Of a stretch of DNA of 64,000 bases, positions 5,497-59,061 are shown in pieces. Position numbers and translations under genes: made by a program. The notes under the pieces are model-generated. The model saw nothing but the letters and a program-made list of their open reading frames with translations. It ran no database searches and was not told where the DNA came from. Source of the stretch: Hysterangium stoloniferum (lineage: Eukaryota; Basidiomycota; Agaricomycetes; Hysterangiales; Hysterangiaceae); NCBI GenBank assembly GCA_015178975.1, contig WHVD01000001.1, forward strand, positions 2,294,001 through 2,358,000, written 5' to 3'. Each line of letters begins with the position of its first letter. Within the stretch, counting starts at the first letter, position 1.

Positions 5497-8400
5497 TTAC
5501 GGGTCTGGCTCAAATACCGTGTCCGGCCACAAAGGGTCATTTATCCAACTGGGCTCCGCATCATAAGAAGCGCGCAATTGCACATCTAGGACAGGTCGCC
5601 CCTCGGGGCCAGGAATATAACGTGGAGAAGTAGGTTCAAACAGGAATATTGTACGCGGTTCCACATCTCCGGAGTGACTAGATTACTCTTTCAGGCTCTG
5701 ACATTGCTGAAGGGGGAAGTGAAACAAACAAATTCTGAGGCATTTCCACAACTACTGTTGCCGCCCAGCAGTTTACTATTGTCACAAAGAGTTCAATATC
5801 ATTCCCAAAAGACTTCTGTGCTTACTGATCATCAACTCGTGTGGAAGGACACCCTCGATCCCATGTTCCTCTATGTAAAGCGGTGCGTATGCTCTCCATG
5901 CTTTTTGCACTTCAGACGACGGGCCGAAGTCTCCAACATGGACAACGGGCTGGTAGAACACTTCGATGTTGGCTTCGCCAATATCATAGGTATATCTACG
6001 CGGCGCAAAACTGAACAGCGATCGGGTCCGTGTGCTAGCTCGAAAAATACCTTCTTATTGGTTTTCCACCTCGTATTGTTACACTCTCACCCTCGTCTAA
6101 ATATCTAGACCTATGGTTGCCGAGGCGAACACGAACCTTGACTGAGGGTTCTATACCGAGGGTTTCAGAGAACCACTCATGTAGATTCCCACACACTACA
6201 AAATCGCCTGTAACTTTATCCCGATAGCCCACGTCCCACAAAGCGAGGGACCCCAGATCTCCATCCTCGATAAGGCCCGTGATTGGTTGCAGATACTGGA
6301 AGTCCAGCAGTTGATTGGCCAATTGATGAATGGTGTGCGAGCTTCGAAGTTGTTCATCCATTAAAGCCGTGCCGAGACGCCATGACTCCACTTGGGACAT
6401 GAATAAATTCACAATGGAATCGGGTGATCATGGATTGATCCTAGAGTAACCGGTATAAATACCGGGATACAATCTCCCATAGTACCCTGGGGCACGGAGC
6501 AGTGTTCCGGTAAACACAAGCTTCAGATGGCGGCGATTGGCAGGACTGTCTGTGACAGTGACAATTGAATCGCCGGGATTTAAAAACTGAATAGACAAAG
6601 TTATAATTGACATCTGATGGCAATCGAATTAACGAACAAGGTCATCAATTTCAATGTTGTTGTTTGAACAGAAATCCCCTAATTCCTATTGTCACATTGT
6701 GACATCAGTATTTGTGGGAGAGAGAAGGTATCCATGTTAGTAATCAAGTCTTCGCGTAAAATGTAACCGAAATATGGATCCGATGACGAATATATGCGCA
6801 TATATGCGCATATATTGAGGTGCCGCTAAGGGGGAAATAGCTCCTAATCTCCTTAATGATGCAATGGACTAGAAAATTCGAGTATCTGAATTTCCCCTAT
6901 TTACTCCCCTAAAAACTCTCCTAAAACAATTAGAAATTAGATAAAAAGTCGAGATATTTCGCCATATACCTCAGTGGAGTTTACTCATTCACTCACTGAG
7001 GTATATACACAATCATTTATTATTCATTCTATTACTTATTAAATATCTTGTAGCTTCGTAAACAGGTACTATAATACATAGTGGAGTTTACTCATTCACT
7101 CACTGAGCTTCGTAAACAGACTCAATCCTTCCGAAATCGTGTCTACTAATTAACAATCCAAGCACGTCACATTGTAAGAATCCCTCTAAAATATATCGCG
7201 TTAACTTGTAAATATCGCGAGTAATTTCATTCACCATGTCGTATAGTGCCAAAATGGTCTCTTTCACACCGGATGATCTAGTGCGTTCGAGCCATTTGCA
7301 TGCGTCCTCAGGTTCAGGGCCCGGATTACGGAAAACTTGAAAACGTACATTGTGTTGTGCGTTGCTGTAGCCCAAGAACTCAGCAATGCTAGGGTCCCTG
7401 AACATGAATGCGATTGGACTACTTGGATTATTTCACCAGATGTGTTGCATTCTTACCATACGTCTTGATAGGAAATGAGGTCACGTTGAAACTATATCAA
7501 AAGTGTGATACGTTGCAAATAGTTTTTGAAATCCACACCAGCCAAAACAAAACACGTACCTCTTTGTGTCTCAAATTCCACGTGGGTCTCCCACCTTCGT
7601 ACATTTTGACCAATACCGACTTACCGTCACTTTCAGCCTTTGCTTCACAAAGTTTGACATTCCACCGCAAGGCGACCGGATGGTGTTCTGCCTTTTCATC
7701 GTCATAATCATTATGGTGTGCGATCGATATGGTGCGCAACACTTGGAAATTCATTCTATGAACCAAACACTATATAATTACTATAAGCCCACGGGCATGA
7801 TCTTTGGGATGACAAAACGAGCGTACGTGTTCACTAATATCGTTTCTTCCTCTGACCGTGACCGATGAAAAATCAAGGATACCGCGTAATTGATGTATGA
7901 TATCGTCCATTCTGTTATCATCGACGGCTACGAGTTGAGCGACGGCTAATGAAGTATCCAGAAAAATGCACATCTAAGAGCCAATATATAACGAACGACT
8001 CTGAGTGTTACTTTCAGCACGTACCATTGCCTCTTTCTCCGCCTCTTCCAATCGCCTTTGCAGTCTGGTGATAGACCTATCTCGTTGTCGCATCCAAGAC
8101 ACGACGTGTGCTTTAAGACCTTTTCTTGGTTTGTATGACCTTGCAAGCCCAAGAACATCCTCAAGTGCACTGAAAACAATCGATTTATTAGTCAAGTACG
8201 GTTACCCAGTGAGTCTCAAGTTCTCACTTCTGATACTCGTCCAATATAGTTTTGAAATCGTCCGGGATGTCCTCCCACTTCCCCCTCAGCTGATCGTGGA
8301 AAGCGACGAGGCGACGTCCAGTGGTCCGGACAAGGCTATTCAATCTCTCGTTTTGCTCCCCGCTTGCCTGGTGATAGTGAATCATGATCTACATCAGGTC

Positions 8401-12910: not shown

Positions 12911-12914
12911 AGCA

Positions 12915-19226: not shown

Positions 19227-19515
19227 TATTAGGTATAACGAGTATTGCAGAAGTAAGCGCGCGTATGAAAAAGGTGAGACAAAATGTCTTGAAAAGACGC
19301 AATGCGTCATATGTTCAATCTCCTCTCGAATGTACTCTTATATACACGTAGCATAGCTAGGGAATCTCTCAGCGAACGTTTATTCGCTGAGAGTAAGTGA
19401 TATGTGTATTGCCTTCTCACGAAACAAAACTTATCTATGTATATAGTACTTAAACGTCTTTAGGTATTGTATAATACAGCGAACATTTATTTGCTGAGAT
19501 ACTTAAACATCTTTA
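19227..19515 (+). repeat. E1 5' LTR, 289 bp
   Basis: A TATA-like TCTTATATAC near 19337 lies about 30 nt before the hairpin segment CAGCGAACG...CGCTGAGA (19370-19392). A GTAAGT...TATAG spacer of 54 bp follows (19393-19446), then the tail TACTTAAACGTCTTTA. The hairpin and tail recur joined at 19477-19515, forming the LTR end. In the 3' LTR this joined copy matches hairpin plus tail base for base. Confidence 0.88.
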
Positions 19516-23608: not shown

Positions 23609-23873
23609 TGTTGGGATAACACCGTAAAAACCTTATCATCACATGTAAGGCACATACACCGTCATCGTTCCCCATGTGGTATTTAAACTGCATAGTTACA
23701 ACATTTACACCTCAGTCCGTTACACACTAATACGAGACTGAGGTGAGTGTTGCTCTGCATAGTATCTCTTTTACCTTTATATTAATTGTATATATCAGAT
23801 ACATATAGGTATATACATAAGTCCGTTACACACTAATATGAGACTGAGATACATATAGAGTTACCTTTCAACA
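23609..23873 (+). repeat. E2 5' LTR, 265 bp
   Basis: A TATTTAAA box (about 23681) lies 30 nt before the hairpin segment that ends GACTGAG at 23742. The spacer GTGAGT...TATCAG is 56 bp (23743-23798) and is followed by the tail ATACATATAG. The hairpin (to 23848) and tail (23849-23858) recur joined, with one mismatch in the hairpin. Confidence 0.9.
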
Positions 23874-29192: not shown

Positions 29193-29231
29193 TTGGACTT
29201 CCCAAGGAGGAGTTTCAACGGTGAGGAGGAG

Positions 29232-29496
29232 TGTTGGGATAACACCGTAAAAACCTTATCATCACATGTAAGGCACATACACGGTCATCGTTCCCCGTGT
29301 GGTATTTAAACTGCGTAGTTACAACATTTACACCTCAGTCCATTACACACTAATACGAGACTGAGGTGAGTGTTGCTCTGCGTAGTATCTCTTTTACCTT
29401 TATATTAATTGTATATATCAGATACATATAGGTATATACATAAGTCCGTTACACACTAATACGAGACTGAGATACATATAGAGTTACCTTTCAACA
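29232..29496 (+). repeat. E2 3' LTR, 265 bp
   Basis: Same length, ends and internal hairpin-spacer-tail layout as the 5' LTR, preceded by a purine-rich GAGGAGGAG tract. A handful of substitutions separate the two LTRs. Confidence 0.92.
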
Positions 29497-29501
29497 AGGG
29501 A

Positions 29502-29653
29502 ATCTCTCAGCGAACGTTTATTCGCTGAGAGTAAGTGATATGTGTATTGCCTTCTCACGAAACAAAACTTAGCTATGTATATAGTACTTAAACGTCTTTA
29601 GGTATTGTATAATACAGCGAACGTTTATTCGCTGAGATACTTAAACGTCTTTA
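29502..29653 (+). repeat. E1 3' LTR, right part
   Basis: Continues the E1 LTR after the duplicated AGGGA. Its last 39 bases equal hairpin plus tail with the GTAAGT...TAG spacer removed, without a mismatch. It ends GTCTTTA at 29653, followed by the E1 target duplicate CTTTC. Confidence 0.9.
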
Positions 29654-30546
29654 CTTTCAGTCTTCGCTTCACAAAGTGTGACACTCCACCGCAAGGTGTC
29701 CCCATGATTTCCTGCCTTTTCATAGTCATAATCATTGTGGTTCGCGACCGATAAGGTGCGTAACAGTTGCAAGTCCCTTCGATCGATCAAATACTGCCTC
29801 ATTATGATAAACCCACGGACATGATCTTTGAGATGACAGAACGGGCGTACGCGTTCACTAATATCACTTCTTCCTCCGCCCGTGACCGATGAAAACGAAT
29901 TAAGGATGATATCGTCCATTCTGGTATCATCGACGGCTACGAGTTGAGCAACGGCTAATGAAGTACCCAGCGAAAAATACATCTAAGAGCCAATATGTAT
30001 AATAAACGACTCTGAGTGTCACTTTCAGCACGCACCATTGCCTCTTTCTCCGCTTCTTCCAATCGCCTTTCCAGTTTGGTGATAGACCTATCTCGTTGTC
30101 GCATCCAAGACACGACGTGTGCTTTCAGACCTTTTCTTGGTTTGTATGACCTTGCAAGCGCAAGAACATCCTCGAGTGCACTGAAAACAATCGATTTATT
30201 TGTCAGGTACGGTTACACAGCGAGTTTCAAGTTCACACTTCTGATAATCGTCCAATATAGTTTTGAAATTGTCCGGGATATTCTCCCACTTCCCCCTCAG
30301 CTGATCGTGGAAGGCAACGAAGCGACGTCCAGTGGTCTGGACAAGGTTATTCAATCTCTCGTTTTGCTCCCCGCTTGCCTAGTGATTGTGAATCATGATC
30401 CACATCAGCTCTTAAACTGATGTTGATGCAGACGGCCTACCTTTATAACGTTCATAATCTCCAAAAAGAAGGGTCGCTGCACTCTTTAACCCAGGCAATG
30501 GAACGGCATCGCCAGCGACTTTGATAACAATGGCTGCAATATCCAT
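29654..30546 (-). pseudogene. Family G copy 2, 5' half
   Basis: This is the N-terminal half of the G gene split by E1. The ATG is at 30546-30544 (MDIAAIVIKVAGDAVPLPGL). The next exon contains a shortened LRGKWENIP-type helix region, followed by the coiled-coil exon (KLERRLEEAEKEAMVRAES) and the exon LAVAQLVAVDDTRMDDII. It ends at the VLVK-coding exon, which is cut by E1 at CTTTC (29654-29658). The end of exon 2 reads ETRC before GTAACC, where the copies at 33449-36038 and 48880-50918 have a TGA. So this copy might once have been functional before the insertion. Confidence 0.62.
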
Positions 30547-30559
30547 GAGCGATGGTCGA

Positions 30560-31280
30560 TGATCTTAGTAGAAAACTGCTCTTTAGCACGTCGAGGCGCT
30601 GTATTTGCTATTAGCTGTGCCCTGAGAATAGAGCGCCAGTTCGGTAGGGGAAATGCAGTGTTCATCTCAACAGCGATACTTATATTCAAAGGCCGTAATC
30701 ACGATGTGGACTTTGTCTGTAGTGGAATTCCTGGAATACAAGGGATTAGATAGGCCATTCGTCATTAAAAGAAAAGCCGCACAATCTTATGCATGGTTTA
30801 CCGAAATGGTTTCTCGAGAAGGGTAAACGGTACCATGAACATAGGGTATTGTAGCGATAGGTCAGTTTTGCCTTGGTTATTCCCGTGATCAGTTGTCTCG
30901 CCTTGTCCTTTGCCAATTGGAGCTAGTATTGTGGCTTTCTGGTAACACTTAAGACATGGATGAGATGGAACTTGTGATATTTTGTAACCCTTTCAATACT
31001 GGATCCGGCTTGGATTCAAGTTTCTCTGTTAAATCTCCCACGGCTACAATACGACTACCGGGTTTCAGAGAGCAGGCTCGGCTCACTGGTATTAGGTACA
31101 CTTTCAGTTCAGTCACTATATCTTTTACACAATTGGAGTGGTGCAATTTGGTGAGCCAGTGGTGGCTTCCGTGTATCTAACACAAATTCTAAGCCTGTAT
31201 CCATCAAATTTCATGCCTGAAATTCGGCATCCAAATCTTTGACCAATAAATATTTTAAGAACAAGTTACTACTCAACGAA
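30560..31280. repeat. H repeat copy between G and U
   Basis: Upstream segment of the G copy, joined directly to a truncated U copy at about 31283. A minus-strand frame of 65 codons (30949-31146, KPGSRIVAVGDLTEKLESKP) is present, but I do not recognise it and it is not intact in the other H copies. Confidence 0.4.
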
Positions 31281-31282
31281 GG

Positions 31283-33000
31283 ACACACCCGGAACTACTA
31301 CATGTCCAATCAACCACACAACAACCGCCTTCCCGGTAGCAATTAATGCCTTCTAACAACGACCGGGAGGGAATGGCCGCGAACGGGGCGGCATTGAAGA
31401 TTGGGAGGGAGGGGACTTTTGTACGGGAGAGGCCGGAGTTAAGCCAGGCAATGCAAGGCGCGAGGAGCCGTTGGGTGCAGGTACAGGCCTGGGTAAGAAA
31501 GGCTAGGGGATAGTATATGCGGAAGGCTGGAAGTGTGGATATTGACTGGAGGGTGGATGCCATGTCACCACTGTTTCCCAAATCCCTCAGCCCTGTCGGC
31601 CCTTGAGAGAAGACAGGCTCAAATCCATTGGGCGGGTATGAGGTAGGTACCTGAGGATAACTCGACTCTTCAAGGAATGGCCTCCTTCCTTGTCCATGAC
31701 ACGCGTTGAAGGGAGAATAACCACCGCTGACCACGTTTTGTAGGCACCGACCTCAAGTGGATAAAATTCGTCGCATGCACAACAAAGATGTCAGGGAAAG
31801 CCGCAACACGTGCACGTTTGGAAACACATCCACAACCTGGTCGGTATCAGCCTATAGTAGTGAGACGACACTATGAAGGACTGACGTCTGCGGTGGAACC
31901 CCTACCTCGCACCGCGGGCACTCAGCTTTTACCGGGCATACAATACCTCTCTAAAGCCGAGATCGGATACCCACGCTCAAATGATCATGCTCTTCCACAC
32001 GATAGCGCAAACCTCCTTGCACTACATACACCGTGACTCTTCCTCCACCTCAAAGCAGAAGATGACAGTAGGCTCCGGCGCCGGGACGTGTTTTTAACTT
32101 GCTGACGCAGGACCTTAAGAATATATATGCGAAGAACTCTTGCACGTCTTGCTGTTTCGTCATCGATATCTCCTCGTGGACTCTTCCGATGAGGGATTTG
32201 AACATGGTATGGTGGGTTTGGATGGGTTCTTGGAATACGGGCAGTGGCGTCGAGGATGGACGAGGGGATCACCGTGGATGGCATTGGGGCCACGGCCTCA
32301 CCAGCACTTCGACGAGGGTAGGGACACCGGCGGTGTGAGACGAGAAATGGCTGCGAGGGTGGGATAACCAGCCTGAACGGATTCGGTCCGCGATTTTGCG
32401 CATCTGAAAGTCAAAACAGGATATGGGGAGCTCTTCGGTGCAGGAACAGACGCGGGTGAGAAAGGATCTAGGATGGTATGTGCGGAAGGCTGGAACTGTG
32501 AATATCGATGTTGATGCCATGTAGCAACTGTTTCCGAGATTGCGCAGTCCGTCAGTCTTGCAGGGGAGACAGGCTCGAAATCATTACACGAGTATGACGG
32601 ACCTCAGGATCATTCGACTTGTCAAGAAATGACCGCGTTCCTTGTCCATGACAAGCCCAATATCTCACTGTCGGTAAACACTCATAATTGACCTTCTCCG
32701 TGTCCTCGACAGTAGCAAGGTTCTTAAGCGGCGGTCCGCGACTGTTCTATCACCAACGCCACCAACTCAATCATCAAAACTTCCCTGCTCATACTCAGCT
32801 GCTCACAGAAGAAAAAAAACACCCTACTCACTCGTTCCGGGTTCGGTTCCAGCATGCTCTTCACATACACGGATACCCAAGCATCCCACAATGCAGCTGC
32901 ACATGCATCCGCATCACATCGCCCCCCACACACTCTCTATCCAAGCACGGGAGGCACACGTCGATGCCTTCAAGTAGATCCTATTAGATCGCGTGGTTGG
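31283..33000 (-). pseudogene. Family U copy 5: UBP14/USP5-like with second, altered Cys box
   Basis: The order is as in the other full copies. The first Cys box is NLGNSCYMAS (Cys codon 32524-32526), then CTEELPISCFDFQMRKIADRI with a W/Y-S-HPR sequence, which closely follows the CxxKLxxCxxCQMxKLADGLLSGxYSHP segment of UBP14 proteins. QQDVQEFF-type sequence lies near 32130-32160. The second Cys box reads GLRDLGNSGDMAS (Gly codon 31567-31569). The UBA-like end breaks off at 31283, where the H repeat begins, so the second UBA is missing. Frame changes between blocks remain. Confidence 0.68.
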
Positions 33001-33448
33001 GGCGTAAGCATAATAAGTGAAATCTCATTTCCATTGGAAGAACGGAGGACATACTTGTTTGTCAAAGCAATGTAGTGTTTCTCTCTGAAAATATTCTGAA
33101 AGACGAGGACTGGGAATGCGAGAAAGTCTGGGAGGAAGAATGAGCGCAAGACACAGGACTCCAGCGCATGTTACACGATGTCACACTTTTTTGTAATTAT
33201 TTTTGAAAATTAACATTCACGTATTCTTACATCTTCTATTCACAATTGAATCATGGGCAGTACAGAGCTCCAGTAAATAAATAGCCTCTATATCTCAGAA
33301 TGATATAACTAGACGTGACGGGAAAATGTTCGCTAGGTTTGATCGTGTCCGAGTTTAATCCTCCTCCCATATCCACCTATGTAGCTGAAAGTACCATACA
33401 AACCTTATTCAAAACGTTAATAGTATTAAATAAGTACAACATCGACGC

Positions 33449-36038
33449 TTATGGGTCTCGCTCAAATACCGTGTCCGGCCACACAGGGTCATTTATCCAA
33501 CTGGGCTCCGCATCATAAGAAGCGCGCAACTGCACATCTAGGACAGACAGGTCGCCCCTCGGGGCCAGAAATATAAGGTGGAGAAGTAGGTTCAAACAGG
33601 AATATGGTACGCGGTTCCACATCTCCGAAGTGACTAGATTACTCTGTCAGGCTCTGACATTGCTGAAGGGGGAAGTGAAAAAAACAAATTCTGAGGCATT
33701 TCCACAACTACTGTTGTCCTAACGTCGTTTACTGTTGTCACAAAGTGGTCAATATCATTCCCAAAAGACTTCTGTGCTTACTGATCATCAACTCGTGTGG
33801 AAGGACACCCTTGATCCCATTTTCCTCTATGTAAAGTGGTGCGTAGGCTCTCCACGCTTTCTGCACTTCAGACGACAGGCCTAAGTCTGCGATATAGACA
33901 CTTGGCCGGCAGAAATCGTCGATACTGGCTTCGCCAATATCATAGGTATATCTACGCGGCAGAAAACTGAGCAACGATCCGGTCAGTGTGCTAGCTCGAA
34001 AAATACCTTCTCATTGGTTTTCCACCTCGTATTGTGACACTTTCACCCTCGTCTAAATATCCAAACCTATGGTTGCCGAGGTTAACACGAACCCCGACTG
34101 ACGGTTCTATACCGAGGGTGTCAGAGAACCACTCATGTAGATTCCCACACACTACAAAATGGCCTGTAACTTTATCCCGATAGCCCACGTCCCACAACGC
34201 GATGGACCCCAGATCTTCATTCTCCATATAGCCCGTAATTGGTCGCAGAAAGTCGAAGTCTAGTAGCTGATTGGCTAATTGATGAATGGTGTGCGAGCTT
34301 CGAAGTTGTTCATTCATTAAAGCAGTGCCAAGACACCATGAATACACCGCGGACATGAATAAGTCTACGATGGTGTCGGGGGGAAATGGATTGATCCTAG
34401 AGTCACCGGTATAAATACCGGGATACCATCTGTAGTCCCTTGATGGGTCACGGCTGAACAGTGTTCCGGTAAACACAAGCTTCAGATGACGGCGATTGGC
34501 AGGAGAGTCTGTGACAGTGACAATTGAATCACCGGGAAGATGAAACTGAATAGAGTTATCATCGACGTCTGATGTCAGTGGAATTAACGAACAAGCTCGT
34601 TCATAAGAATTTCGTTGTTTGAACAGAATTCAACTAATTCCTAATGACACATTGTCACATCAGTATTTGCGGGAAAGAAGGTATCCAAGCACGTCACATT
34701 GTAAGAATCCCTCTAAAATATATCGCGTTAGCTTGGAAATATCGCAAGTAATTTCATTCACCATGTCGTATAGTGCCAAAATCGTTTCTTTCACACCGGA
34801 TGATCTAATGCGTTCGAGCCATTTGCATGCGTCCTCAGGTTCAGGGCCCGGATTACGGAAAACTTGAAAAAGTACATTGTCTTGTGCGTTGCTGTAGCCC
34901 AAGAACTCAGCAATGCTAGGATCCCTGGACATGAATGCGATTGGACTACTTGGTTATTTAATCTGATGTGTTTCATTCTTACCATATGTCTTGATAGGAA
35001 GTGAGGTCCCGTTGAAACTATATCAAAAGTGTGATATGTTGCAAATAGTTTCGGAAACACAAACCAGCCAAAACAAAACTCGCACCTCTGTGTGTCTCAA
35101 ATCCCACGTGGGTCTCCCGCCTTCGTACATTTTGACCAATACCGACTTGCCGTCACTTTCGGTCTTCGCTTCACAAAGTTTGACATTCCACCGCAAGGCG
35201 ACTCGATGGTTTCCTGCCTTTTCAACGTCATAATCATTATGGTGCGCGATCGATATGGTGCGCAACACTTGGAAATTCCTTCTATGAACCAAACACTATA
35301 TCATTACTATAAGCCCACGGGCATGATCTTTCAGATGACAGAACCGGCGTACGTGTTCACTAATATCGTTTCTTCCTCTGACCGTGGCTGACGAAAACGA
35401 ATCGGGGATGGTATCGTCCATTCTGGTATCATCGACGGCTACGAGTTGAGCGACGGCTAATGAAGTATCCAGCAAAATGCACATCTAAGAGCCAATATGT
35501 AACGAACGTTGAGTGTCACTTTCAGTACGCACCATGGCCTCTTTCTCCGCTTCTTCTAATCGGCCCCCAGTTTGCCGATAGACTTGTCGCGTTGTCGGAT
35601 CCAAGACACGTGTGATTTAAGACCTTGGCTTGGTTTGTATGACCTTGCAAGCGCAAGAACATCCTCAAGTGCACTGAAAAAAAACAATTTATTCGTCAGG
35701 TACGGTTACTCAGTGAGTCTCAAGTTCCCACTTCTGATAATCGTCCAATATAGTTTTGAAATTGCCCGGGATATTCTCCCACTTCCCCCTTAACTGATCG
35801 TGGAAAGCGACGAGGCGACGTCCAGTGGTCCGGACAAGGGTATTCAATCTCTCGTTTTGCTCTCCGCTTGCCTGGTAATTGTGAATCATCATCCCCATCA
35901 GCTCTTAAACTAGTGTTGATGCAGACGACCCACCTTTGTAGCGTTCATAATCTCCAAAAGAAGGGTCGCTGCACTCTTTAAGCCAGGTACTGGAACGGCA
36001 TCGCCAGCGACTTTGACAACAATTGCTGCAATGTCCAT
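33449..36038 (-). pseudogene. Family G copy 3: MLKL-NTD-like plus kinase-like protein, most continuous copy
   Basis: This copy has no transposon in it. Exon 1 is 36038-35934 (MDIAAIVVKVAGDAVPVPGL). A 62-nt intron follows (35933-35872), then an exon ending in KWELETH before GTAACC and a 36-nt intron (35709-35674). The coiled-coil-like exon follows. NFQVLRTISIAHHNDYDVEK and SVLVKMYEGG lie at 35110-35280, and DPSIAEFLGYS near 34890. The C-terminal frame 33991-34476 is open and carries LALWDVGYRDKVTGHFVV. A 40-nt intron (34006-33967) leads to FLPRRYTYDIGEASIDDF, and the stop is at 33449-33451. A TGA precedes the second donor, so the copy is either dead or spliced differently. The kinase-like region shows no HxD or DFG motif. 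Confidence 0.6.
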
Positions 36039-38612: not shown

Positions 38613-38888
38613 GGAATTTGCGAATATCCACAGCCACCTGGGAGGAGGCCCCGCAGTCCGACAGTGTAAATTATTGCTGTAGGCATGCCGCCAAGAACAC
38701 AAAGATATAGATTGCTCATATATTTCGCCGTAAATTGCGAAGGTATTGAAAGAATTGGGATGTCAGTCCAGCACAGCCGCAAGGCGTGATACAAGATGCC
38801 ATAGAAAGTTACACCTTCAGTTAAAAGACCCCACATCGCCTCAATACAGAACTAGATCCGTAATACACATACTTGTGGTAGACCTTTA

Positions 38889-39223
38889 TGTTGAATTTTA
38901 GGCTCTTGCAGTCGGACCAATGGCTACCCAACACCGTATACGGATACACCACCCCGTATACCGTTATACCAAGCCGCATTATCCCCTGCCTAATATACCA
39001 CGACTCACTACCATCAACTACGTAATTTAGATATTTTACTATTTAGCCTCGAACGTTTCGATACCCATACCTCAGTCGAATCACTATCTGTGTCGACTGA
39101 GGTACGTCAGTACGAACTATTTCTCGTCTTCGTATTCTTATCTTGATGTAATGTAGCGTGTTTCTTACAGGTAGTAAATCTTAGTCGAATCACTATCTGT
39201 GTCGACTGAGCGTGTTTCTTACA
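38889..39223 (+). repeat. E4 5' LTR, 335 bp
   Basis: The hairpin segment has a 9-bp stem (CTCAGTCGA with TCGACTGAG, 39071-39101) and is preceded by a weak TATA-like TACTATTTAG about 30 nt upstream. A 55-bp spacer GTACGT...ATGTAG follows (39102-39156), then the tail CGTGTTTCTTACAG (39157-39170). The hairpin (39183-39210, 28 bases identical) and tail (from 39211) recur joined at the LTR end, without the spacer. Confidence 0.92.
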
Positions 39224-39236
39224 GGTTATGGGCCCC
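39224..39236 (+). promoter_or_regulatory. Primer-binding site of E4
   Basis: GGTTATGGGCCCC directly after the LTR, matching the anticodon-stem region of initiator tRNA-Met (half-tRNA priming of the copia kind). Confidence 0.8.
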
Positions 39237-39372: not shown

Positions 39373-40089
39373 ATGGCGTCACACCAACCAGCACTATTTA
39401 TGTTGCAACCTGAGGATCGCCTCGATGGACACAATTGGTTCGCATGGCATGACACTATCTGGTCTGCAGTGGATGCACGAGGCGTCCGAGGGTATATGGA
39501 TGGAACTATAAAGAAACCTTCCCAACTTGCCCCCAATACTACCCCTGTACCAACGACTTACTGGGGATCACACAATCCTTCACCCGAGGAATGGGAACAG
39601 CACGACGCATATGCAAAGGCAATGATTGATCTGAACATCAAGAATCCTATCAGCAACGGCATTCAACCGTCCGATACTGCGAGTGAGGCCTGGTCCGCCC
39701 TGAAAGTGATACACAGTGCAACCTCCGATATAGGTTTGCTTAATGCCGATAACGATTTGCGTACAATCAAGCATATTGACGGCGCGGACATCATATCCCA
39801 TTTCACACGACTACGCGAAGGATGGGCAAAGGTCAACACGCAAGGGGGAAAAATGGACGATTCTACTTTCCGCACAATTGTGATTGTGTCGATGCCTAAG
39901 GAGTGGGATCTAGTAATTGGAACTCTTTTCTCACTGAAGACCTCCAAAGAAGTAATATCAAACCTCACCTTATATGACAAAACAATCGCACGAAACAGGA
40001 AACCCACACCCCAAACTTCACAAGCTCTCGCGACTACTAAATCTAATCGGTCTAGTGATGTTTGCTCCAACCCAACTGTAAACGCATAG
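39373..40089 (+). CDS. E4 Gag-like protein
   Basis: Open frame of 238 codons from MASHQPALFMLQPEDRLDGH, with the copia Gag pattern HNWFAWHDTIWSAVDARGVR. The leader before it (39270-39360) is a set of tandem GACCAACTGAACCTG-like repeats. The frame stops at TAG (40087) just where a zinc knuckle is encoded in the next frame (C-x4-C-x4-H-x4-C, near 40070-40115). So a one-base shift separates Gag from its RNA-binding end; programmed frameshifting is possible but a mutation is likelier. Confidence 0.75.
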   Translation: MASHQPALFMLQPEDRLDGHNWFAWHDTIWSAVDARGVRGYMDGTIKKPSQLAPNTTPVPTTYWGSHNPSPEEWEQHDAYAKAMIDLNIKNPISNGIQPSDTASEAWSALKVIHSATSDIGLLNADNDLRTIKHIDGADIISHFTRLREGWAKVNTQGGKMDDSTFRTIVIVSMPKEWDLVIGTLFSLKTSKEVISNLTLYDKTIARNRKPTPQTSQALATTKSNRSSDVCSNPTVNA

Positions 40090-43000
40090 GACACACGATT
40101 GAGAAGTGTTTCAAAGTCGGAGGGGGAATGGAAGGTCAGTTTCCTGATTGGTGGAGGAAGAAGGGGACCGGTACTGGTGGAAGTCAAGCCGCGCAGCAAC
40201 AAAAACCATCCGACGGTGTACCTACGAAATCAACAGCTAACGTGTCGACAGCTAACGTGGCAGTCGTGCCCTCTACTCCCTTCACACCTGGATCTGGAGA
40301 ATTCTGCGCCCTTATGATGCAGGTAGATCCAACGGTATCCACCAACAGCACTATTGTCACCTATGCTGACTCCGCAGCGAGTGATCATTTTTTTAATGAT
40401 ATAAACGATTTTCAAACTTACAAGAATTATAATGGGAAGGATGGGACTATGGCTAACAATGGTAGCACTTTTTCAATCTGCGGAAAGGGGACAGTTAGCA
40501 AGCGTTGCATATACGATGGACGCGTTATCAATCTCATATTTCAGGACGCACTTCATTGCCTGACCTTATCCCACAACCTCGTGTCCATCGGGAAACTTGA
40601 CAACAGTGGATGTTATGCAATTTTTGGGGGCGGCGGCGTTACCTTTATCAACCCAGATGGTCGTCCATTTATGTATGGGAGGGGAGAAGGAACAATGTAC
40701 AAGATCGACATTGTTCCCCCAGCTGGCCCCCTCCCAGATAGCGTGCAATTATCACCGGAGATGGCAATACACCCAGCGGCCATAGTCAAGATGACCGCAC
40801 ATGCTTTTGCTGCCAAATCCCACGACCGACCAACCAATATAGATACCTGGCATCGACGCCTTGGTCACGTTCGGTACGATACTGTACAACAAATGGCCAA
40901 TCACAACGTCGTTCGTGGCATGCAGGTAACCACCATGACGCCCCAACCAGGGACATGTGAGGGATGTATAATGGGGAAGCATACACGCCGCCCATTCTAC
41001 ATCAATGATGAGCGTGAAACAGCAATCGGGGAATGGACCTATGTTGACTTGTGGGGACCGTCCTGAGTCCAGTCCATCAGCGGGAGAAGTTACATGATGC
41101 CGTGTGTCGACGGGTACAGTGGTCACCCGGAAGTTTTCTTCTTGTCCAGTAAAGAAGCAAAAGGAACCTTAGCTGCATTGAAGCAATATACAGCGCTCAC
41201 TGAACGTCAGACGGGGATGAAGGTGCGCAGGATACGTACCGACGAAGGCACCAAATTCTTCAATTTATTGTGGACCACTTACCTCAACAAACAAGGGATT
41301 ATACACGAAACCACCACTGCGTACTCGTCTTTGTCCAACAGCGTTGTCGAGCGATGTCATCGCACCATCATCGAGCAAGTGCGCATTTGCCTGTATGAGA
41401 ATAAGTTACCTTCTGCGCTGTGGTGTGAAATCGCAGCAGCGATCGTATATGTGATGGATTTTATCCCTACTACCAGAAACCCCAACTCGACTCCTTTTGA
41501 GTTGTGGCATGGGAAGAAACCCGATATTTTCTCACCTGCGTCCCCTCGGTTGTGTAGCTTATGCTAAAATCCCCATCGAAACAGGAGGAGGGCTTAGTAA
41601 ACTGGATCCACGGTCCATAAAAGGGGTGCATATTGGATATTTCGGACATGACGCTTATAGAATTTACGACCCAGAGACGCGTCGTATTTTTCGCTCGCGT
41701 GATGTCATCTTCGAGGAGGGTCGCAGTTGCAAGACACTGATGGAGATATCGGGTGATGAGGAAATACAGAATCTCGACCACGTTACACTCACCACACCGG
41801 TTAACGAGAACACAGATGAACTGAGCAGCGGTTTGGCACCAGTACAAGACCACACTTCCGCAATTGCCCCAACCAATATCTCAATCCCAACCGTCACTGA
41901 GTCTACCAGCGTGGAATCTGCACCACGTTGTTCCACATGTGTATCTGTTCCAACACAGGCACTTAAGGAATCTCTCACCTCAGAGATGAACATACAGCAA
42001 GCCCAGTTGGCAGGGGAAGCGTGGGGTGACGACAGAGTACATAGTGCGTTCCATACTGATGCCATGACAGTTCCAGACCCAACAAACATGTGGCTTCCCA
42101 AAACATACAGCGAGGCGATGACGCGTCCTGACATATGGGCCGGCCCTATCAACAAAGAGTTAAACGTCATGAGAAAACACGGGGTGTGGACAGTTATGGA
42201 CTGTCCTGCTAATGCTAGACTGGTACAAACGCGTTGGACCTTTGCACACAAATACAACAGTAACGGCAAACTTATTGCCCGCAAGGCAAGACTCGTCGCT
42301 AAAGGTTTTACCCAAATACCCGGTGTCGATTTTTTCGAAACATACACCTCTGTTGTTCGGTATGAGTCACTGCGAATGAATTTGGCCGTTGCAGCTGCCA
42401 AAAACATGGAGTCATGGCAGATTGACTACGTCGCGGCATACCTCAATTCAGTTCCACAAGCTGTTACATACATCGAACTTCCTGACGGCGCGAAGGAGGC
42501 AGGGAAGGTCGGGAGACTGGAAAGGACTTTATATGGCACCATGGATGGTGCCAATAACTGGTGGGGAACTTTGGATAGAGAAATGGGTGAGTTGGGATAT
42601 TACCGGTCAAAAGCCGACCCATCAGTGCGCTCCCGCCATGCGAATGGCAGCACCACAATAACATCCACATACACTGACGACACGACCGGAATCTCCTCAT
42701 CTGAAGAAGAGGCACATAGAGCCAAGGAAGAATTAGGCTGGAAGTACGAGACCAAGGACATGGGGGATGTGAATTTAATCCTGGGAATCCGAATCGACCG
42801 TGACAGGAAACGTGGCACAATAAAGCTATCACAACACGCATACCTCAAACGAATTCTTGAGCATTTCGGAATGACAGAGTCAAACCCTCGCGGCACACCA
42901 CTACCCCCAGGCATTACGCTGAACAGGGAGCAGGGGCCCCAGACGACTGAAGACCGCGTCTTCATGGCTGATAAGCCATATCGAGAGTTACTGGGATCAA

Positions 43001-43391
43001 TTATGTACGCACAAATTGCAACGCGTCCAGACCTCTCGTACGCGGTCTCCACACTGAGCAAGTTTGCCTCAAACCCCAGGAAGGCTCACTGGAACGCATT
43101 GACCCACGTCTTACGATATATCAAAGGGTCACTCAATTACGGGATTACATATGGGGGTTCACTCCAGGATGTCAGGCCAGTCGGGTATGTCGACGCTGAT
43201 TTCGCCTTTACAACGATAATTCAGGCGCAGTTCTCTTAACCAAGAATACGAAACACAACGCACGTGTTAAGCATATTGATATACGGTATCACTACATACG
43301 GGAACGGGTCGAGGAGGGGGACATCGAAGTCCATCGCGTCACATCATCTGATAACCTCACGGATATGTTCACGAAACCGTTGCCCAAATAA
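40062..43391 (+). pseudogene. E4 Pol remnant
   Basis: After the knuckle comes the protease motif YADSAASDHFF (about 40362), with Ala where Gly is usual. Integrase has WHRRLGHVRYD (about 40850), CEGCIMGKH, VDLWGPS and a TGA (41064-41066), then RTDEGTKFF and SVVERCHRTI (about 41340). A frameshift near 41560 precedes the next block. The reverse transcriptase has VAKGFTQIPGVDFFETY, IDYVAAYLNS (about 42420) and YTDDTTG (about 42672). RNase H starts GYVDADFA (about 43188), but the middle is deleted; the end resumes with VKHIDIRYHYIRERVEEGD near 43270 in another frame. It cannot make active RNase H. Confidence 0.88.
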
Positions 43392-43451: not shown

Positions 43452-43786
43452 TGTTGAATTTTAGGCTCTTGCAGTCGGACCAATGGCTACCCAACACCGT
43501 ATATGGATACACCATCCCGTATACCGTTATACCAAGCCGCATTATCCCCTGCCTAATATACCACGACTCACTACCATCAACTACGTAATTTAGATATTTT
43601 ACTATTTAGCCTCGAACGTTTCGATACCCATACCTCAGTCGAATCACTATCTGTGTTGACTGAGGTACGTCACTACGAACTATTTCTCGTCTTCGTATTC
43701 TTATCTTGATGTAATGTAGCGTGTTTCTTACAGGTAGTAAATCTTAGTTGAATCACTATCTGTGTCGACTGAGCGTGTTTCTTACA
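43452..43786 (+). repeat. E4 3' LTR, 335 bp
   Basis: Same layout as the 5' LTR, preceded by AGCCAGGGGGAG as polypurine tract. The few changes include C to T within the second hairpin copy. Confidence 0.92.
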
Positions 43787-43791
43787 CTTTA

Positions 43792-44733
43792 TCCCATAAC
43801 GATTGAAAGAAAAGAATCGATGAATGACAGACATTAACGTCTAATCACGTGCAGCTACAGAGACCTTGAACACTAAAGATTCGGAATCGCCACAAGTCAT
43901 AGCGCCTTATTCTCATTTTGAACTGTATTTGCACCGGTTTATCACTGGAGGCATCCCAAGATTTTTGGAGTTGGAAAACCTTCAGAAAATCTTGTTATTT
44001 GGCCAAATTTTCTAAGTGTTTTGTGAATTGAAAAACTCTTTGAAAATTCTAAATTTTAGTAGGTTTTTCTGAGGCCAAAAATTGGATCTGAAAATTCTAA
44101 AAATTTGCATCAGGAAATTATGAGGAAATATTGTTGGAAATAGCCTATTCTTTATGGATTTTCTGAATAAGAAAACTTTTAGAAAACCCTGTATTTTGTT
44201 AGGATTTTTCCACCTAACAAAATCCTATGAAAACTGTAATAATGTGCCTAGAGAAATCAATTGAAAACCACATATTTCTACTTAATTTTGCCTCTGAGGG
44301 AATTCAGTGAAAACTATGGTTCCCTGCCTGAAAAAATCTTGAGCCAAGACAAAGTTTTTTTAATGTTTTGTCAAGGGGAAAACCATGATGAAGTTTACAA
44401 TTTAATTATACATAAAATCATTGAATAATTAGATATTTCAACAAAATTTTCCTTGGTCACAAACACTATGGAAATTCAAAAAATCTGTTTGTGAAATCAT
44501 GAAGAAATTGATGATTTTCCATGAGTTTCTTAGAGGTTTTTCAAGGTGAGAAACCCTGAACCGATGTTTTGCAATTCAGCACAATTTGCAAATATTCAAA
44601 AGGATACAGTGCGATTCAGTGCGATTCGCAAATATTTGAAAAGATACAGTGTGATTCATTACAAACAATTGGCAAGTGTTCAGGAATATTCAATGCGATT
44701 TGCAAGTTTTCAGGAGGCTAGAGTGCAACTCTT
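43792..44733. other. AT-rich non-coding sequence
   Basis: Rich in AAAATTC and TTTTCTGA-like strings with no gene. At 44575-44720 it passes into GTGCGATTC/GCAAATATT repeats that recur at 48086-48140. Confidence 0.5.
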
Positions 44734-45060
44734 TTAGACTTTTTGCAACTATTCTAGACTTTTTGCGACTATTCTAGACTCTTTGTGATTGTTTGCGACT
44801 GTTTGTGACTCTGATAGACTGTTTGCGACTCTTTTGGACTTTTTGCAACTCTTTTGGACTTTTTGCAACTCTTTTGGACTCTTTGCAACTCTTTTGGACT
44901 TTTTGCGACTCTTTTAGACTCTTTGTGACTCTTATAGACTCGTTACGACTGTTATAGACTCTTTGCAACTGTTATAGACTCTTTGTGACTCATGTAGACT
45001 CTTTGCGACTTTTTGTGACTCTTCACGACTCTTTTAGACTCTTTGCGACTTTTTGTGTCT
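44734..45060. repeat. Minisatellite array A, about 20-bp unit
   Basis: Tandem units of the form GACTYTTTGCAACTCTTTTG. An inverted version lies at 47836-48070 and a direct relative at 48118-48275. Long open frames across it are a product of the unit composition. Confidence 0.9.
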
Positions 45061-45215
45061 TTGAAAAGTTGCAAAGTCGCACAAAGTTGCAAAGTGTCAC
45101 ATAAAGTCACACAGTCGCACAAAGTCACAAAGTGTCACACAAAGTCACAAAGTATCGCAAAAAGTCGTGCTACAAAAAGTCACAAAAGTGTCACAAATCA
45201 TAGCACAGTGTCTTC
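45061..45215. repeat. Minisatellite array B
   Basis: Irregular tandem units of the AAAGTCGCACAAAGTTGC and AAAGTGTCACAC type. The direct relative is at 48296-48680. Confidence 0.85.
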
Positions 45216-47835: not shown

Positions 47836-48070
47836 AAAAAGTCACAAAGAGTCTACATGAGTCACAAAGAGTCTATAACAGTTGTAACGAGTCTATAAGA
47901 GTTGCAAACAGTCCAAAAGAGTTGCAAACAGTCCAAAAGAGTCGCAAACAGTCCAAAAGAGTTGCAAACAGTCCAAAAGAGTTGCAAACAGTCCAAAAGA
48001 GTTGCAAACAGTCCATCAGAGTTGCAAACAGTCACAAATAATCACAAAGAGTCTAGAATAGTTGCAAAAA
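47836..48070. repeat. Minisatellite array C (inverted relative to array A)
   Basis: Units such as AGTTGCAAACAGTCCAAAAG. Its left end matches the reverse complement of array A around 44940-45010 closely, including the distinctive TCTACATGAGTCACAAAG string. Confidence 0.88.
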
Positions 48071-48117
48071 GTCTAAATCGGGAGGATTGAGTGCGATTCC
48101 CAAATATTCAAGAGGCT

Positions 48118-48275
48118 ACAGTGGGATTCATTGCGACTCTTTTAGACTTTTTGTGACTCTTTTAGACTTTTTGTGACTCTTTTAGACTTTTTGTGACTCT
48201 TTTAGACTTTTTGTGACTCTTTTAGACTTTTTGTGACTCTTTTAGACTTTTTGCGACTCTTTAAGACTCTTTTAG
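48118..48275. repeat. Minisatellite array D
   Basis: Very regular 20-bp units GACTCTTTTAGACTTTTTGT, in the same orientation as array A. Confidence 0.9.
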
Positions 48276-48295
48276 ATTGTTTGTGGCTCTTTTAG

Positions 48296-48680
48296 TCAAA
48301 GTGTCACAAAAAGTTGCACAAAGTCGCAAAGTGTCACACAAAGTCGCATAGTGTCACAAAAAGTCGCAAAGTGTCACAAAAAGTCGCAAAGTTCCACGAA
48401 GTCACCAAATGTCACACAAAGTCGCAAAGTTGCAAAAAGTTGCAAAAAGTCACAAGAGTTCAAAAAGTCACAGAGTCACACAAAGTCTCAAAGTGTCACA
48501 AAAAGTCGCACAAAGTTGCAAAGTGTCACACAAAGTTGCAAAGTGTCACACAAAGTCGCAAAGTACAAAAAGTCGCAAAGTCGCACAAAGTCGCAAAGTC
48601 ACAAAAAGTCACAAAAAGTCGCAAAAAGTCACAGAGTTCAAACAGTCACAGAGTCATACAAAGTCACAAAGTGTCACAAA
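48296..48680. repeat. Minisatellite array E
   Basis: Irregular AAAGTCGCAAAGTGTCACA-type units in the same orientation as array B. The 48086-48680 stretch repeats the order seen at 44575-45215. Confidence 0.88.
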
Positions 48681-48879
48681 AATTCATATTGCACACCTCC
48701 AGCATCGACTATCTCAGACTGACAATTAAAGAGAGCTGCATGGTTGGGTAGGGGGAGAGTGTTAGCTCTCCATGTGTGCGTGGGAAGACTCACCGCTCGG
48801 GAGGGCAGGCATTCATGATGCATTTACAGCTCTCGTTTTGTGCAATCCGAAACTATGACAAAATACTATGCACAGAGGT

Positions 48880-50918
48880 ACCTTCTCATTGGTTTTCCAC
48901 CTCGTATTGTTATACTCTCACTCTCGTCTAAATATGTAGACTCTCGTTCGTTGAGGTCAACACGAACCCCGACGAAGGGTTCCATACCGAGGGTTTCAGT
49001 GAACCACTCATGTAGATTCCCACACACTACAAAATCGCCTGTAACTTTATCCCGATAGCCCACGTCCCACAAAGCGATGGACACCAGATCTCCATCCTCG
49101 ATGTCGCCCGTGATTGGTTCCAGAAACCCGAAGTCCAGTAGCTGATTGGCCAATTGATGAATGGTGTGCGAGCTTCGAAGTCGTTCATCCATTAAAGCAC
49201 TGCCGAGACACCATTATTCCACTTCGGAGATGAATAAGTCTACGATGGAGTCGTGTGATGATGGATTGATCCTTGAGTCACCGGTATAAATACCGGGAAG
49301 CCATCCCCAATTGGGCTTTGAGACACCGGTGCGCAGTGTTCCGGTGTACACAAGCTTCAGATGACGGCGATTGGCAGGACTGTGTGTGACAGTGACAATT
49401 GAATCACCCGGAAGTTCAAACTGAATAGACAAAGTTAACATTGACATCTGATGTCAGTGGAATTAACGAACAAGGAAGCCAATTTTCATGTCGTTGTTTG
49501 AACAGAATTCCCGTAATTCCTAATGTCACATTGTCATATCAGTATTTGGGGGAAAGAAGGTATCCAAGCACGTCACATTGTAAGAATCCCTCTAAAATAT
49601 ATCACGTTAGCTTGTAAATATCGCGAGTAATTTCATTCACTATGTCGTATAGTGCCAAAATAGTTTCTTTCACACCGGATGATCTAGTGCGTTCGAGCCA
49701 TTTGCATGCGTCCTCAGGTTCAGGGCCCGGATTACGGAAAACTTGAAAAAGTACATTGTGTTGTGCGTTGCTGTAGCCCAAGAACTCAGCAATGCTAGGG
49801 TCCCTGAACATGAATGTGATTGGACTACTTGGGTTATTTAGTCTGATGCATTCTTACCACACGTATTGATAGGAAGTGAGGTCGTGTTGAAACTATATCA
49901 AAAGTGGGATACGTTGCAAATAGTTTCGGAAACCCAAACCAGCCAAAGCGGGGCTCGTACCTTTTTGTGTCTCAAATCCCATGTGGGTCTCCCGCCTTCG
50001 TATTAACCAATACCGACTTACTGTCACTTTCAGTCTTCGCCTCACAAAGTTTGACACTCCACCGCAAGGCGACCGGATGATTTCCTGCCTTTTCATCTTC
50101 ATAATCATTATGGTTCGTGATTGATATGGTGCGTAACACTTGGAAATCCCTTCTATGAACCAAACACTATATCATTACTATAAGACCACATGCATGATAT
50201 TTTGTGATGGCAGAACAAGCGTACGTGTTCACTAACATCGTTCTTTCCTCTGCCCGCGACCGACGAAAACGAATCAAGGATGATATCGTCCATTCTGGGA
50301 TCATCGACGGCTACGAGTTGAGCGACGGCTAATGAGGTATCCAGCGAAAAGTACATCTAAAAGCCAATCCGCATAACCGACGACTTTGAGTGTCACTTTC
50401 AGCACGCACCATAGCCTCTTTCTCCGCTTCTTCCAATCGCCTTTCCAGTTTGGCGATAGACTTATCTCGCTGTCGCATCCAAGACACCACGTGTGCTTTG
50501 AGACCCCTCCTTGGTGTGTATGACCTTGCAAGCGCAAGAACATCCTCAAGTGCACTGAAACAGTCAATTTATTTAACAATTACGGTTACTCAGTGAGTCT
50601 CAAGTTCTCACTTTTGATAATCGTCCAATATAGTTTTGAAATTGGCCGGGATATTCTCCCACTTCCCCCTCAGCTGATCGTGGAAAGCGACGAGGCGACG
50701 TCCAGTAGTCCGGACAAGGTCATTCAACCTCTCGTTTTGCTCCCCGCTTGCCTGATGGTTGTGAATTATGATCCACATTAGCTCTTGAACTAGTGATGAT
50801 GCAGACGACCTGCCTTTATAACGTTCATAATCTCCAAAACAAGGGTTGCTGCACTCTTTAAGCCAGGTACTGGAACGGCATCGCCAGCGACTTTGACAAC
50901 AATGGCCGCAGTGTCCAT
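48880..50918 (-). pseudogene. Family G copy 4, last exons missing
   Basis: It starts with the ATG at 50918-50916. The helical N-terminus (LVRTTGRRLVAFHDQLRGKW), the coiled-coil exon, the VLVK exon and DPSIAEFLGYSNAQHNVLF (near 49790) are present. The C-terminal frame has GDSIVTVTHSPANRRHLKL but contains TAA in the SEVE-stop-W stretch (near 49213). The copy ends at about 48880, exactly at the donor of the last-but-one intron, where the minisatellite block begins; the FLPRRY and EPRTIFLF exons are lost. It is therefore a pseudogene. Confidence 0.65.
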
Positions 50919-53676: not shown

Positions 53677-53994
53677 TGTTAAAATTGCAACTAATATTTA
53701 TCTCAGTCTCGTATTAGGGTATAACAGACTAAGTGTATGTACCTAATATTTATCTAACACATATTGTCAATACAGCAATAAGGGACGTTATTTAGAGCAA
53801 ACTCACCTCAGTCTTGTATTAGGGTATAACGGACTGAGGTGTAGATAGTTTGACTACATAGTTTAAATACCGTGCAGTGAATGATGACCATATGTGGAAC
53901 AAGGGGATGACGTGTCATTTCGTGTATCCACGATCGCGTGTTCTAAAAATAGATATCGTTCATCGAATCCATTGTTCATGTATACATTCCAACA
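53677..53994 (-). repeat. E3 3' LTR, 318 bp
   Basis: TGTTGG...TTTTAACA on the minus strand, with the same hairpin-spacer-tail layout as the 5' LTR. Confidence 0.95.
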
Positions 53995-58743: not shown

Positions 58744-59061
58744 TGTTAAAATTGCAACTAATATTTATCTCAGTCTCGTATTAGGGTATAACGGACTAAG
58801 TGTATGTACTTAATATTTATCTAACACATATTGTCAATACAGCAATAAGGGACGTTATTTAGAGCAAACTCACCTCAGTCTCGTATTAGGGTATAACGGA
58901 CTGAGGTGTAGATAGTTTGACTACATAGTTTAAATACCGTGCAGTGAATGATGACCATATGTGGAACAAGGGGATGACGTGTCATTTCGTGTATCCACGA
59001 TCGCGTGTTCTAAAAATAGATATCGTTCGTCGAATCCATTGTTCATGTATACATTCCAACA
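58744..59061 (-). repeat. E3 5' LTR, 318 bp
   Basis: On the minus strand a TATTTAAA box lies about 35 nt before the hairpin segment. The spacer GTGAGT...TGTTAG is 53 bp (58873-58821), followed by the tail ATAAATATTA (58820-58811). The hairpin (58797-58769) and tail (58768-58759) recur joined without the spacer. Confidence 0.9.

What the first reader, a model, noticed from the sequence alone, without database searches (positions are those of the whole stretch)
38889..39223. Copia LTRs contain an intron-like spacer plus a second, exactly spliced copy of the same segment at the LTR end
In the E4 LTR a hairpin segment (39074-39101) is followed by a 55-bp GTACGT...TAG spacer (39102-39156) and the tail CGTGTTTCTTACAG. 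At the LTR end the same 28-base hairpin segment and the same tail are fused with the spacer missing to the base. The same layout occurs in E1, E2, E3 and the solo LTR at 6735, with unrelated sequences but always CTCAG...CTGAG stems, GT...AG borders and 53-56 bp spacers. A TATA-like box lies about 30 nt before each hairpin, so transcripts should start at the hairpin. The inference is that the 5' leader is spliced and the LTR 3' end is a reverse-transcribed copy of that spliced leader; the hairpin copy could serve as the repeated R region for strand transfer. I do not know of a description of this.
Basis: partly seen in the sequence, partly recalled or inferred. Interest (0 to 1): 0.92.

Follow-up and report, generated by a model that had tools for sequence, protein, structure and literature searches.

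The report
Jumping gene that keeps its introns
Copia-type jumping genes in this genome carry introns inside their long terminal repeats and appear to rebuild the end of each repeat by copying their own spliced RNA leader, a way for a retroelement to keep introns that copying through RNA would normally erase.

Summary
The E4 LTR is U3 / A1 / 55-bp GT..AG spacer / tail1 / 12 bp / A2 / tail2, where A2-tail2 is A1-tail1 without the spacer. Of the first 100 listed (of 257) primer-site loci, 74 have this layout in many diverged families; the join is GT-AG in 73. A second intron is hidden in it: tail1 runs into GT, its copy ends in AG (65 of 74). In 69 loci A1 and A2 differ by 7 transversions in 1,970 aligned positions, while A differs between loci by 32% transversions. 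A TATA-like box lies near -32 of A1. The base before A1 is invariant; the base before A2 varies between insertions but agrees in both LTRs (9 of 9 pairs). Rare LTRs lack intron 1 to the base. Best reading: transcription starts at A1, two introns are removed, the strong-stop cDNA of the spliced leader lands on A2 of the RNA 3' end, and the intron-bearing A1 block survives as part of U3. No RNA data were available, so splicing is inferred. Nine full-text searches listed no description of this.

The parts
38884..38888 (+). E4 target-site duplication CTTTA (partner 43787-43791)
38889..39223 (+). E4 5' LTR (TG..CA)
39040..39046 (+). TATA-like box (TATTTAG), 34 bp before A1
   Evidence: read; position class
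39071..39073 (+). CTC just before the inferred start site; can pair with GAG at the end of A1 only if RNA reads through from U3
39074..39101 (+). A1: inferred exon 1, 5' R segment, hairpin
39102..39156 (+). intron 1 (GTACGT..TAG, 55 nt)
   Evidence: GT-AG in 73 of 74 loci
39157..39170 (+). tail1: inferred micro-exon 2
39171..39224 (+). inferred intron 2 (GTAGTA..ACAG, 54 nt) = mid + A2 + tail2; its last G is the first base of the primer site
39171..39182 (+). mid (not copied)
39183..39210 (+). A2: second copy of A, inferred 3' R and landing site
39211..39224 (+). tail2: second copy of tail; LTR ends at 39223
39224..39234 (+). primer binding site GGTTATGGGCC (copia-type half-initiator-tRNA site, recalled)
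40062..43239 (+). E4 pol pieces in two separate open frames (Pol_BBD, gag_pre-integrs; SH3_retrovirus, RVT_2)
43452..43786 (+). E4 3' LTR, same layout (A1 43637-43664, intron 1 43665-43719, A2 43746-43773)
19227..19515 (+). E1 5' LTR, same layout (A1 19370-19392, intron 1 19393-19446, A2 19477-19499)
23609..23873 (+). E2 5' LTR, same layout (A1 23714-23742, intron 1 23743-23798, A2 23820-23848)
29232..29496 (+). E2 3' LTR, same layout (A1 29337-29365, intron 1 29366-29421, A2 29443-29471)
29508..29653 (+). hairpin part of the E1 3' LTR (split by E2), same layout, TSD CTTTC after it
6735..7118 (+). LTR without partner in the window, same layout (A1 6973-7000, intron 1 7001-7053, A2 7080-7107)
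58744..59061 (-). E5 5' LTR, same layout (A1 58874-58902, intron 1 58821-58873, A2 58769-58797); intron 2 donor reads AAGT here
53677..53994 (-). E5 3' LTR, same layout; TSD CATTC

Best explanation
These are Copia-type LTR retrotransposons whose 5' leader has two short spliceosomal introns inside the LTR. Inferred cycle: (1) RNA starts at A1. (2) Intron 1 (between A1 and tail1) and intron 2 (mid-A2-tail2, ending at or near the primer site) are removed, so the RNA begins A-tail-U5-primer site. (3) Reverse transcription from the primer site runs to the RNA 5' end, giving a short strong-stop cDNA of A-tail-U5, probably often with an extra untemplated base. (4) The RNA 3' end carries U3-A1-intron 1-tail1-mid-A2; the strong-stop cDNA lands on A2. 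(5) The new LTR is U3-A1-intron 1-tail1-mid plus a fresh copy of A-tail-U5. In the 3' LTR the introns then count as part of U3, so they are not lost, and A2-tail2 is rewritten from A1-tail1. Intron 1 of the 3' LTR must stay unspliced; a likely reason is that CTC, which lies outside the RNA at the 5' end, completes the A1 stem in the 3' LTR and covers the splice donor. Shown from sequence: layout, concerted identity, splice-site signals, variable junction at A2, precise intron-1 absences. Inferred: splicing, start site, RNA 3' end after A2, landing, donor masking.
For: (a) 257 genome matches of CTGAG + 8-32 nt + primer site, 0 for the reversed control. Of the first 100, all examined: 75 have a first copy; 74 with a gap of 47-63 nt, GT-AG in 73; GT and AG of intron 2 in 65 of 74. 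(b) A1 versus A2 in the 69 of 74 loci with a match of at least 20 nt: 66 transitions and 7 transversions in 1,970 positions; transversion distance in the last 20 nt 0.0029 within a locus, 0.321 between loci. (c) TATAWAW match of 6-7 of 7 upstream of A1 in 53 of 69 (27 perfect); upstream of A2 31 of 69 (2 perfect); shuffled A1 windows 19 of 69 (6 perfect); 54 of 67 TATA-like starts lie at -34 to -31 of A1. (d) CTNAY branch-type site at -30..-12 in 27 of 31 intron-1 families, shuffle mean 7.3, 0 of 1000 reach it. (e) In one family the base before A2 is G, T or C (25 insertions by my grouping: G 11, T 7, C 4, shorter or longer mid 3), equal in both LTRs in 9 of 9 pairs; C before A1 in 39 of 39. 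On a weak tree the junction has the largest excess of steps of 18 columns and no phylogenetic signal (7 steps, permutation mean 7.95). (f) Precise intron-1 absence: L038 and L131, both LTRs of one insertion; L063 versus L050. (g) Predicted pairing of the exon end beside the donor 0.99 in 3' LTR context, 0.63 in RNA from A1, 29 families.
Against: No RNA evidence. The intron 2 donor is weak (GTA, mostly no G at +5), and nine of 74 loci lack its GT or AG. A one-intron splice from A1 to the AG of A2 gives the same RNA, so two introns are inferred mainly from the tail identity. The A and tail stretches compared were chosen by the matching itself, which favours identity; the fixed 20-nt comparison is not trimmed but uses only loci with a long match, and distances between loci are end-anchored without gaps, so part of them is register. 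The folding contrast follows partly from the stem's own complementarity, and E4 shows hardly any (0.99 versus 1.00). Intron-1-less doubles were not found in the E4 or the CTCTTCTTAG family with up to 3 mismatches, only in the E1 family. Eighteen of the 25 loci without a first copy are single intron-free LTRs (by eye), which may come from plain deletion between A1 and A2: insertion L123, with a matching TSD, has a double 5' and a single 3' LTR. The search pattern demanded CTGAG and the primer site, so their conservation is no evidence.
Confidence: 0.78

Rival explanations
1. One intron only: the strong donor after A1 is joined to the AG at the end of A2, giving A1-tail2-primer site. A2 is rewritten each cycle, tail1 is not.
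For: Same RNA product; intron 1 donor is strong, intron 2 donor weak.
Against: Leaves the likeness of tail1 and tail2 unexplained (11 mismatches in 1,002 aligned positions in 69 loci; 33 distinct tails in 65 loci), and the AG|GT at the end of tail1 in 65 of 74 loci, also in the 37 loci where 15-18 nt of U5 follow the copied tail.
Confidence: 0.1
2. Conventional long R: RNA starts at A1, is not spliced when reverse transcribed, and the A2-tail2 copy is an old duplication kept by selection.
For: An unspliced RNA would also pass the layout on.
Against: Predicts that a variable strand-transfer junction lies before A1, but that border has C in 39 of 39 and the variable one is before A2; does not keep A1 and A2 alike while A changes between loci.
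Confidence: 0.05
3. Conventional R at A2: RNA starts at A2; the A1 block is an upstream relic.
For: Explains the variable base before A2; 29 of 69 loci have a 6-of-7 TATA match upstream of A2.
Against: Perfect TATA-like matches 27 of 69 at A1, 2 of 69 at A2; A1 and tail1 would drift from A2 and tail2 but do not; splice signals of intron 1 are kept.
Confidence: 0.05
4. DNA-level gene conversion or template switching between the two copies keeps them alike, without splicing.
For: Short direct repeats do recombine; LTR pairs with unequal numbers of copies exist (L123; L129 and L130).
Against: Conversion of the first copy by the second would delete the spacer, yet it is kept, with GT-AG at the join in 73 of 74.
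Confidence: 0.02

Closest known systems
Copia (Pseudoviridae) LTR retrotransposons with a half-initiator-tRNA primer site
   Same: RVT_2 in E1, E2, E4 and E5, gag_pre-integrs in E2, E4 and E5, copia-type gag in E1 and E5 (weakly E2), 5-bp target duplications, primer site directly after the LTR (primer type recalled)
   Different: Known Copia elements as I recall them have one R segment per LTR and no introns in the LTR
Foamy viruses: major splice donor inside R of the LTR (PMC3694450; abstract and one results section read)
   Same: Splice donor close to the start site inside the LTR; RNA structure that includes U3 bases is reported to differ in the 3' LTR and presumably to block the donor there
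   Different: There the matter is poly(A) choice; the parts read describe no second spliced copy of R-U5 in the LTR
HTLV/BLV-type retroviruses with a splice donor in R (recalled, nothing read)
   Same: Donor within the LTR
   Different: Genomic RNA is unspliced; no doubled R
Penelope-like retroelements that keep introns (recalled; search listing only)
   Same: A retroelement that keeps introns through retrotransposition
   Different: Different reverse transcriptase class and no LTR strand transfer of this kind

Membership tests
Copia LTR retrotransposon | Copia-type RT (RVT_2) | tested here: met
   in open frames of E1, E2, E4 and E5
Copia LTR retrotransposon | two direct LTRs flanked by a short target duplication | tested here: met
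   E4 CTTTA, E2 AGGGA, E1 CTTTC, E5 CATTC
Copia LTR retrotransposon | primer site directly after the 5' LTR | tested here: met
   GGTTATGGGCC at 39224, 23874, 19516 and 58733 on the minus strand; primer tRNA not tested
Standard LTR architecture U3-R-U5 | start site and poly(A) site bound one contiguous R at the same place in both LTRs | tested here: inconclusive
   sequence signals speak against it: start-site signals at A1, junction signature at A2; RNA ends not measured
Foamy virus | foamy-virus gag/pol and env | tested here: not met
   Copia-type domains only in the seven ORFs scanned
Foamy-like donor masking (works like) | splice donor structured differently in 5' and 3' LTR RNA | tested here: inconclusive
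   predicted pairing 0.63 versus 0.99 in 29 families, 18 differ by more than 0.2, none the other way, E4 hardly; no probing data
Penelope-like element | Penelope RT | tested here: not met
   RT matches RVT_2, Copia type
Spliceosomal intron | GT..AG borders and branch site | tested here: met
   intron 1; intron 2 has borders in 65 of 74, branch site not shown
Spliceosomal intron | removed from RNA | not testable with these tools
   no RNA data; genomic copies lacking intron 1 only

The most novel reading that the evidence does not exclude
A whole radiation of LTR retrotransposons has split R in two: a 5' R (A1) with the promoter before it and two introns behind it, and a 3' R (A2) that is overwritten each cycle by the cDNA of the spliced leader. 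Reverse transcription thus restores the introns instead of erasing them, and each LTR end is a record of the parent's splicing.
Probability: 0.72. Interest if true: 0.93.

Novelty: new variant of a known kind. Interest (0 to 1): 0.88.

Why it matters
Retroelements normally lose introns when spliced RNA is copied. Here the spliced product seems to be what gets copied, and yet the introns survive because the strand-transfer point lies downstream of them. If true this is a new solution to an old problem, it separates the two roles of R, and it gives a genomic read-out of transcription start, splicing and strand transfer in an organism for which no RNA data were on hand. It also warns that the usual LTR model (start site to poly(A) site = R) can fail.

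Tried and rejected
One-intron model: dropped as the main reading because it leaves tail identity unexplained. Unspliced long R: dropped because the A1 border is invariant. A2-only start: dropped for lack of a good TATA-like box there and for A1/A2 identity. Single intron-free LTRs as proof of splicing: not used, since deletion between A1 and A2 gives the same (L123, TSD GGTGG). A look outside this genome: 86 viral-contig stretches match the CTGAG-primer pattern, none has the doubled layout at the score asked; this genome has no relatives in the tool, and I searched no other eukaryote genome. The YTRAY branch-site count on 65 loci was only modestly above shuffles (41, mean 29.9, maximum 40 of 200); after removing near-duplicates, and with CTNAY, it was clear. 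Intron-1-less doubles in the E4 and CTCTTCTTAG families: none with up to 3 mismatches. Literature: nine full-text searches answered, three of them with 0-1 papers; no listed title or abstract start described an intron-bearing LTR whose spliced copy closes the LTR. Only the best 8-15 hits were listed, subscription papers are largely missing from that library, and I read one paper in part.

Full report
What is there. E4 is a Copia element (Pol_BBD, gag_pre-integrs, SH3_retrovirus and RVT_2 in two open frames) with LTRs at 38889-39223 and 43452-43786, 98.5% identical, TSD CTTTA. Its LTR reads U3, A1 (28 nt), a 55-nt GT..AG spacer, tail1 (14 nt), a 12-nt mid piece, A2, tail2, then the primer site GGTTATGGGCC. 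A2-tail2 is A1-tail1 with the spacer gone to the base. E1, E2, the LTR at 6735 and a fifth element E5 on the minus strand (1496-aa open frame, TSD CATTC) have the same plan.

How general. A pattern of CTGAG, 8-32 nt and the primer site has 257 matches in the 111-Mb genome against 0 for the reversed control. Only the first 100 places, in contig order, are listed; I examined all of these (L009-L108). 75 have a first copy upstream: 74 with a gap of 47-63 nt and one (L038) with none. Of the 25 others, reading the printed sequence by eye, 18 are single LTRs of the form U3-A-tail-primer site, one (L050) is A-intron-tail-primer site, and 6 are truncated or unclear. The join found by sequence matching, with on average 2.8 equivalent positions, can be GT..AG in 73 of 74; the exception, L065, begins TT. 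There are 31 distinct intron-1 families at 75% identity over the last 45 nt, and 27 carry a CTNAY branch-type site starting at -30 to -12 (shuffle mean 7.3, 0 of 1000 shuffles reach 27).

A second intron. In most families the LTR goes on after the copied tail (37 of 65 loci have 15-18 nt before the primer site, one has 7, 27 have none). In 65 of 74 loci there is a point in the shared tail where the first copy runs on with GT and the second copy ends in AG; the shared stretch stops 0-3 bases past it (11, 16, 36 and 2 loci). Of the nine misses, reading, six look like a single changed G (L015, L021, L034, L072, L086, L105) and three do not (L027, L055, L083). The second intron (mid-A2-tail2) would be 50-65 nt. 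Its donor is weak: GTA in 61 of 65, mostly without the G at position 5 that intron 1 has in 63 of 65. With both introns removed the RNA starts A-tail-U5-primer site, which is the DNA from A2 on.

The copies move together. In the 69 loci with an A match of at least 20 nt (5 of 74 dropped), A1 and A2 differ at 73 of 1,970 positions, 66 of them transitions; 31 loci have no mismatch. In the last 20 nt of A the transversion distance is 0.0029 within a locus and 0.321 between loci (end-anchored, no gaps, so partly register). 60 of 69 loci have their own A1 as best or tied match to their own A2. Tails: 11 mismatches in 1,002 aligned positions, 59 of 69 loci with none (all). The aligned stretches were chosen by the matching, which favours identity; the fixed 20-nt figure does not depend on trimming.

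Start site and junction. TATAWAW matches of 6-7 of 7 lie upstream of A1 in 53 of 69 loci (27 perfect), upstream of A2 in 31 (2 perfect), and in 19 shuffled A1 windows (6 perfect); 54 of 67 TATA-like starts lie at -34 to -31 of A1. In the 65 loci where the start motif was found, the three bases before A1 are CTC in 64; the base before A2 is T 38, C 18, G 8, A 1. In one family (CTCTTCTTAG tail) 34 junction matches, 25 insertions by my grouping on contig, strand and distance, show G 11, T 7, C 4 and three with a shorter or longer mid piece ending in G; nine insertions have both LTRs in the list and all nine agree. The matching A1 border has C in 39 of 39 and CTC in 38. In an alignment of 20 insertions the junction column needs 7 steps, the largest excess among the 18 columns tested, and is no better than random permutation (mean 7.95; 272 of 1000 reach 7 or fewer); the tree is poorly resolved and other columns are homoplastic too. 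This is what one expects if the RNA 5' end is copied, an untemplated or near-start base is added, and transfer happens at A2. Reading G as a copy of the cap is recalled knowledge and untested, and T, not G, is the commonest base over all families.

Exceptions that speak. The element on contig C24 has both LTRs as A-tail-mid-A-tail: intron 1 is absent to the base and the rest is kept (L038, L131, TSD CGATG). Contig C279 has a triple A-tail-mid-A-tail-mid-A-tail (L129) and, 6 kb on, a double (L130), taken as one insertion although the flanks read AAGAG and AAGGG. L050 and L063 are relatives with one copy each; one has the intron, the other lacks it exactly; L063's form has one exact match in the genome, itself, and one with 3 mismatches. 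In C35 both LTRs are single (L052, L132). These forms fit combinations of which intron was removed and where the cDNA landed. But single LTRs can also arise by deletion between A1 and A2: L123, with TSD GGTGG, has a double 5' LTR and a single 3' LTR. The E4 and CTCTTCTTAG families have no intron-1-less double with up to 3 mismatches.

Why the 3' LTR keeps intron 1. The stem CTCAG..CTGAG straddles the inferred start site. Of 43 distinct hairpins (7 of 65 loci dropped, not fitting the motifs asked for), 42-43 pair at each of the five outer positions; several of these were fixed by the motifs asked for. Positions 6 and 7 pair in 40 and 42 with some compensating changes, positions 8 and 9 in only 17 and 14. 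RNA from A1 lacks CTC; RNA reading through the 3' LTR has it, and the exon end beside the donor is then predicted paired at 0.99 instead of 0.63 (29 of 31 families; 18 differ by more than 0.2, none the other way; E4 hardly; with CTC masked 0.46); the first six intron bases 0.75 instead of 0.58. Foamy viruses are reported to hide the donor of the 3' LTR in a similar way (PMC3694450; abstract and one results section). This step is inference.

Verdict. It remains unproven at RNA level. The host species is not known to me, and nothing here says how widespread the plan is beyond this genome.

Noticed in passing
L109-L128 LTR ends (for example L109:5487-5520): The fifth base from the LTR end (N in NAACA before the primer site) also varies between insertions (C 10, T 9, G 1 in 20) and is equal in 7 of 8 LTR pairs (not L123); perhaps an error spot just after primer extension begins.
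   Followed up: partly
window 23604-29501: E2 sits inside the 3' LTR of E1, just before its hairpin, with TSD AGGGA.
   Followed up: yes
window 44704-45083 and 47897-48610: Arrays of a degenerate 10-bp repeat.
   Followed up: no
window 1168-8403, 12176-19319, 29630-35907, 48879-50787, 59269-63993: Long direct repeats of about 60-95% identity at similar spacing; looks like a diverged family of several-kb units.
   Followed up: no
L009-L108: Differences between A1 and A2 are almost all transitions (66 of 73), as after cytosine deamination of silenced repeats.
   Followed up: partly
window 54173-58663 (minus strand): E5 keeps one open frame of 1496 aa with gag to RT domains and LTRs 98.7% identical.
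   Followed up: no
L123 (contig C201) and L129/L130 (contig C279): Insertions whose two LTRs differ in the number of A-tail units, the 5' LTR having more in both.
   Followed up: partly
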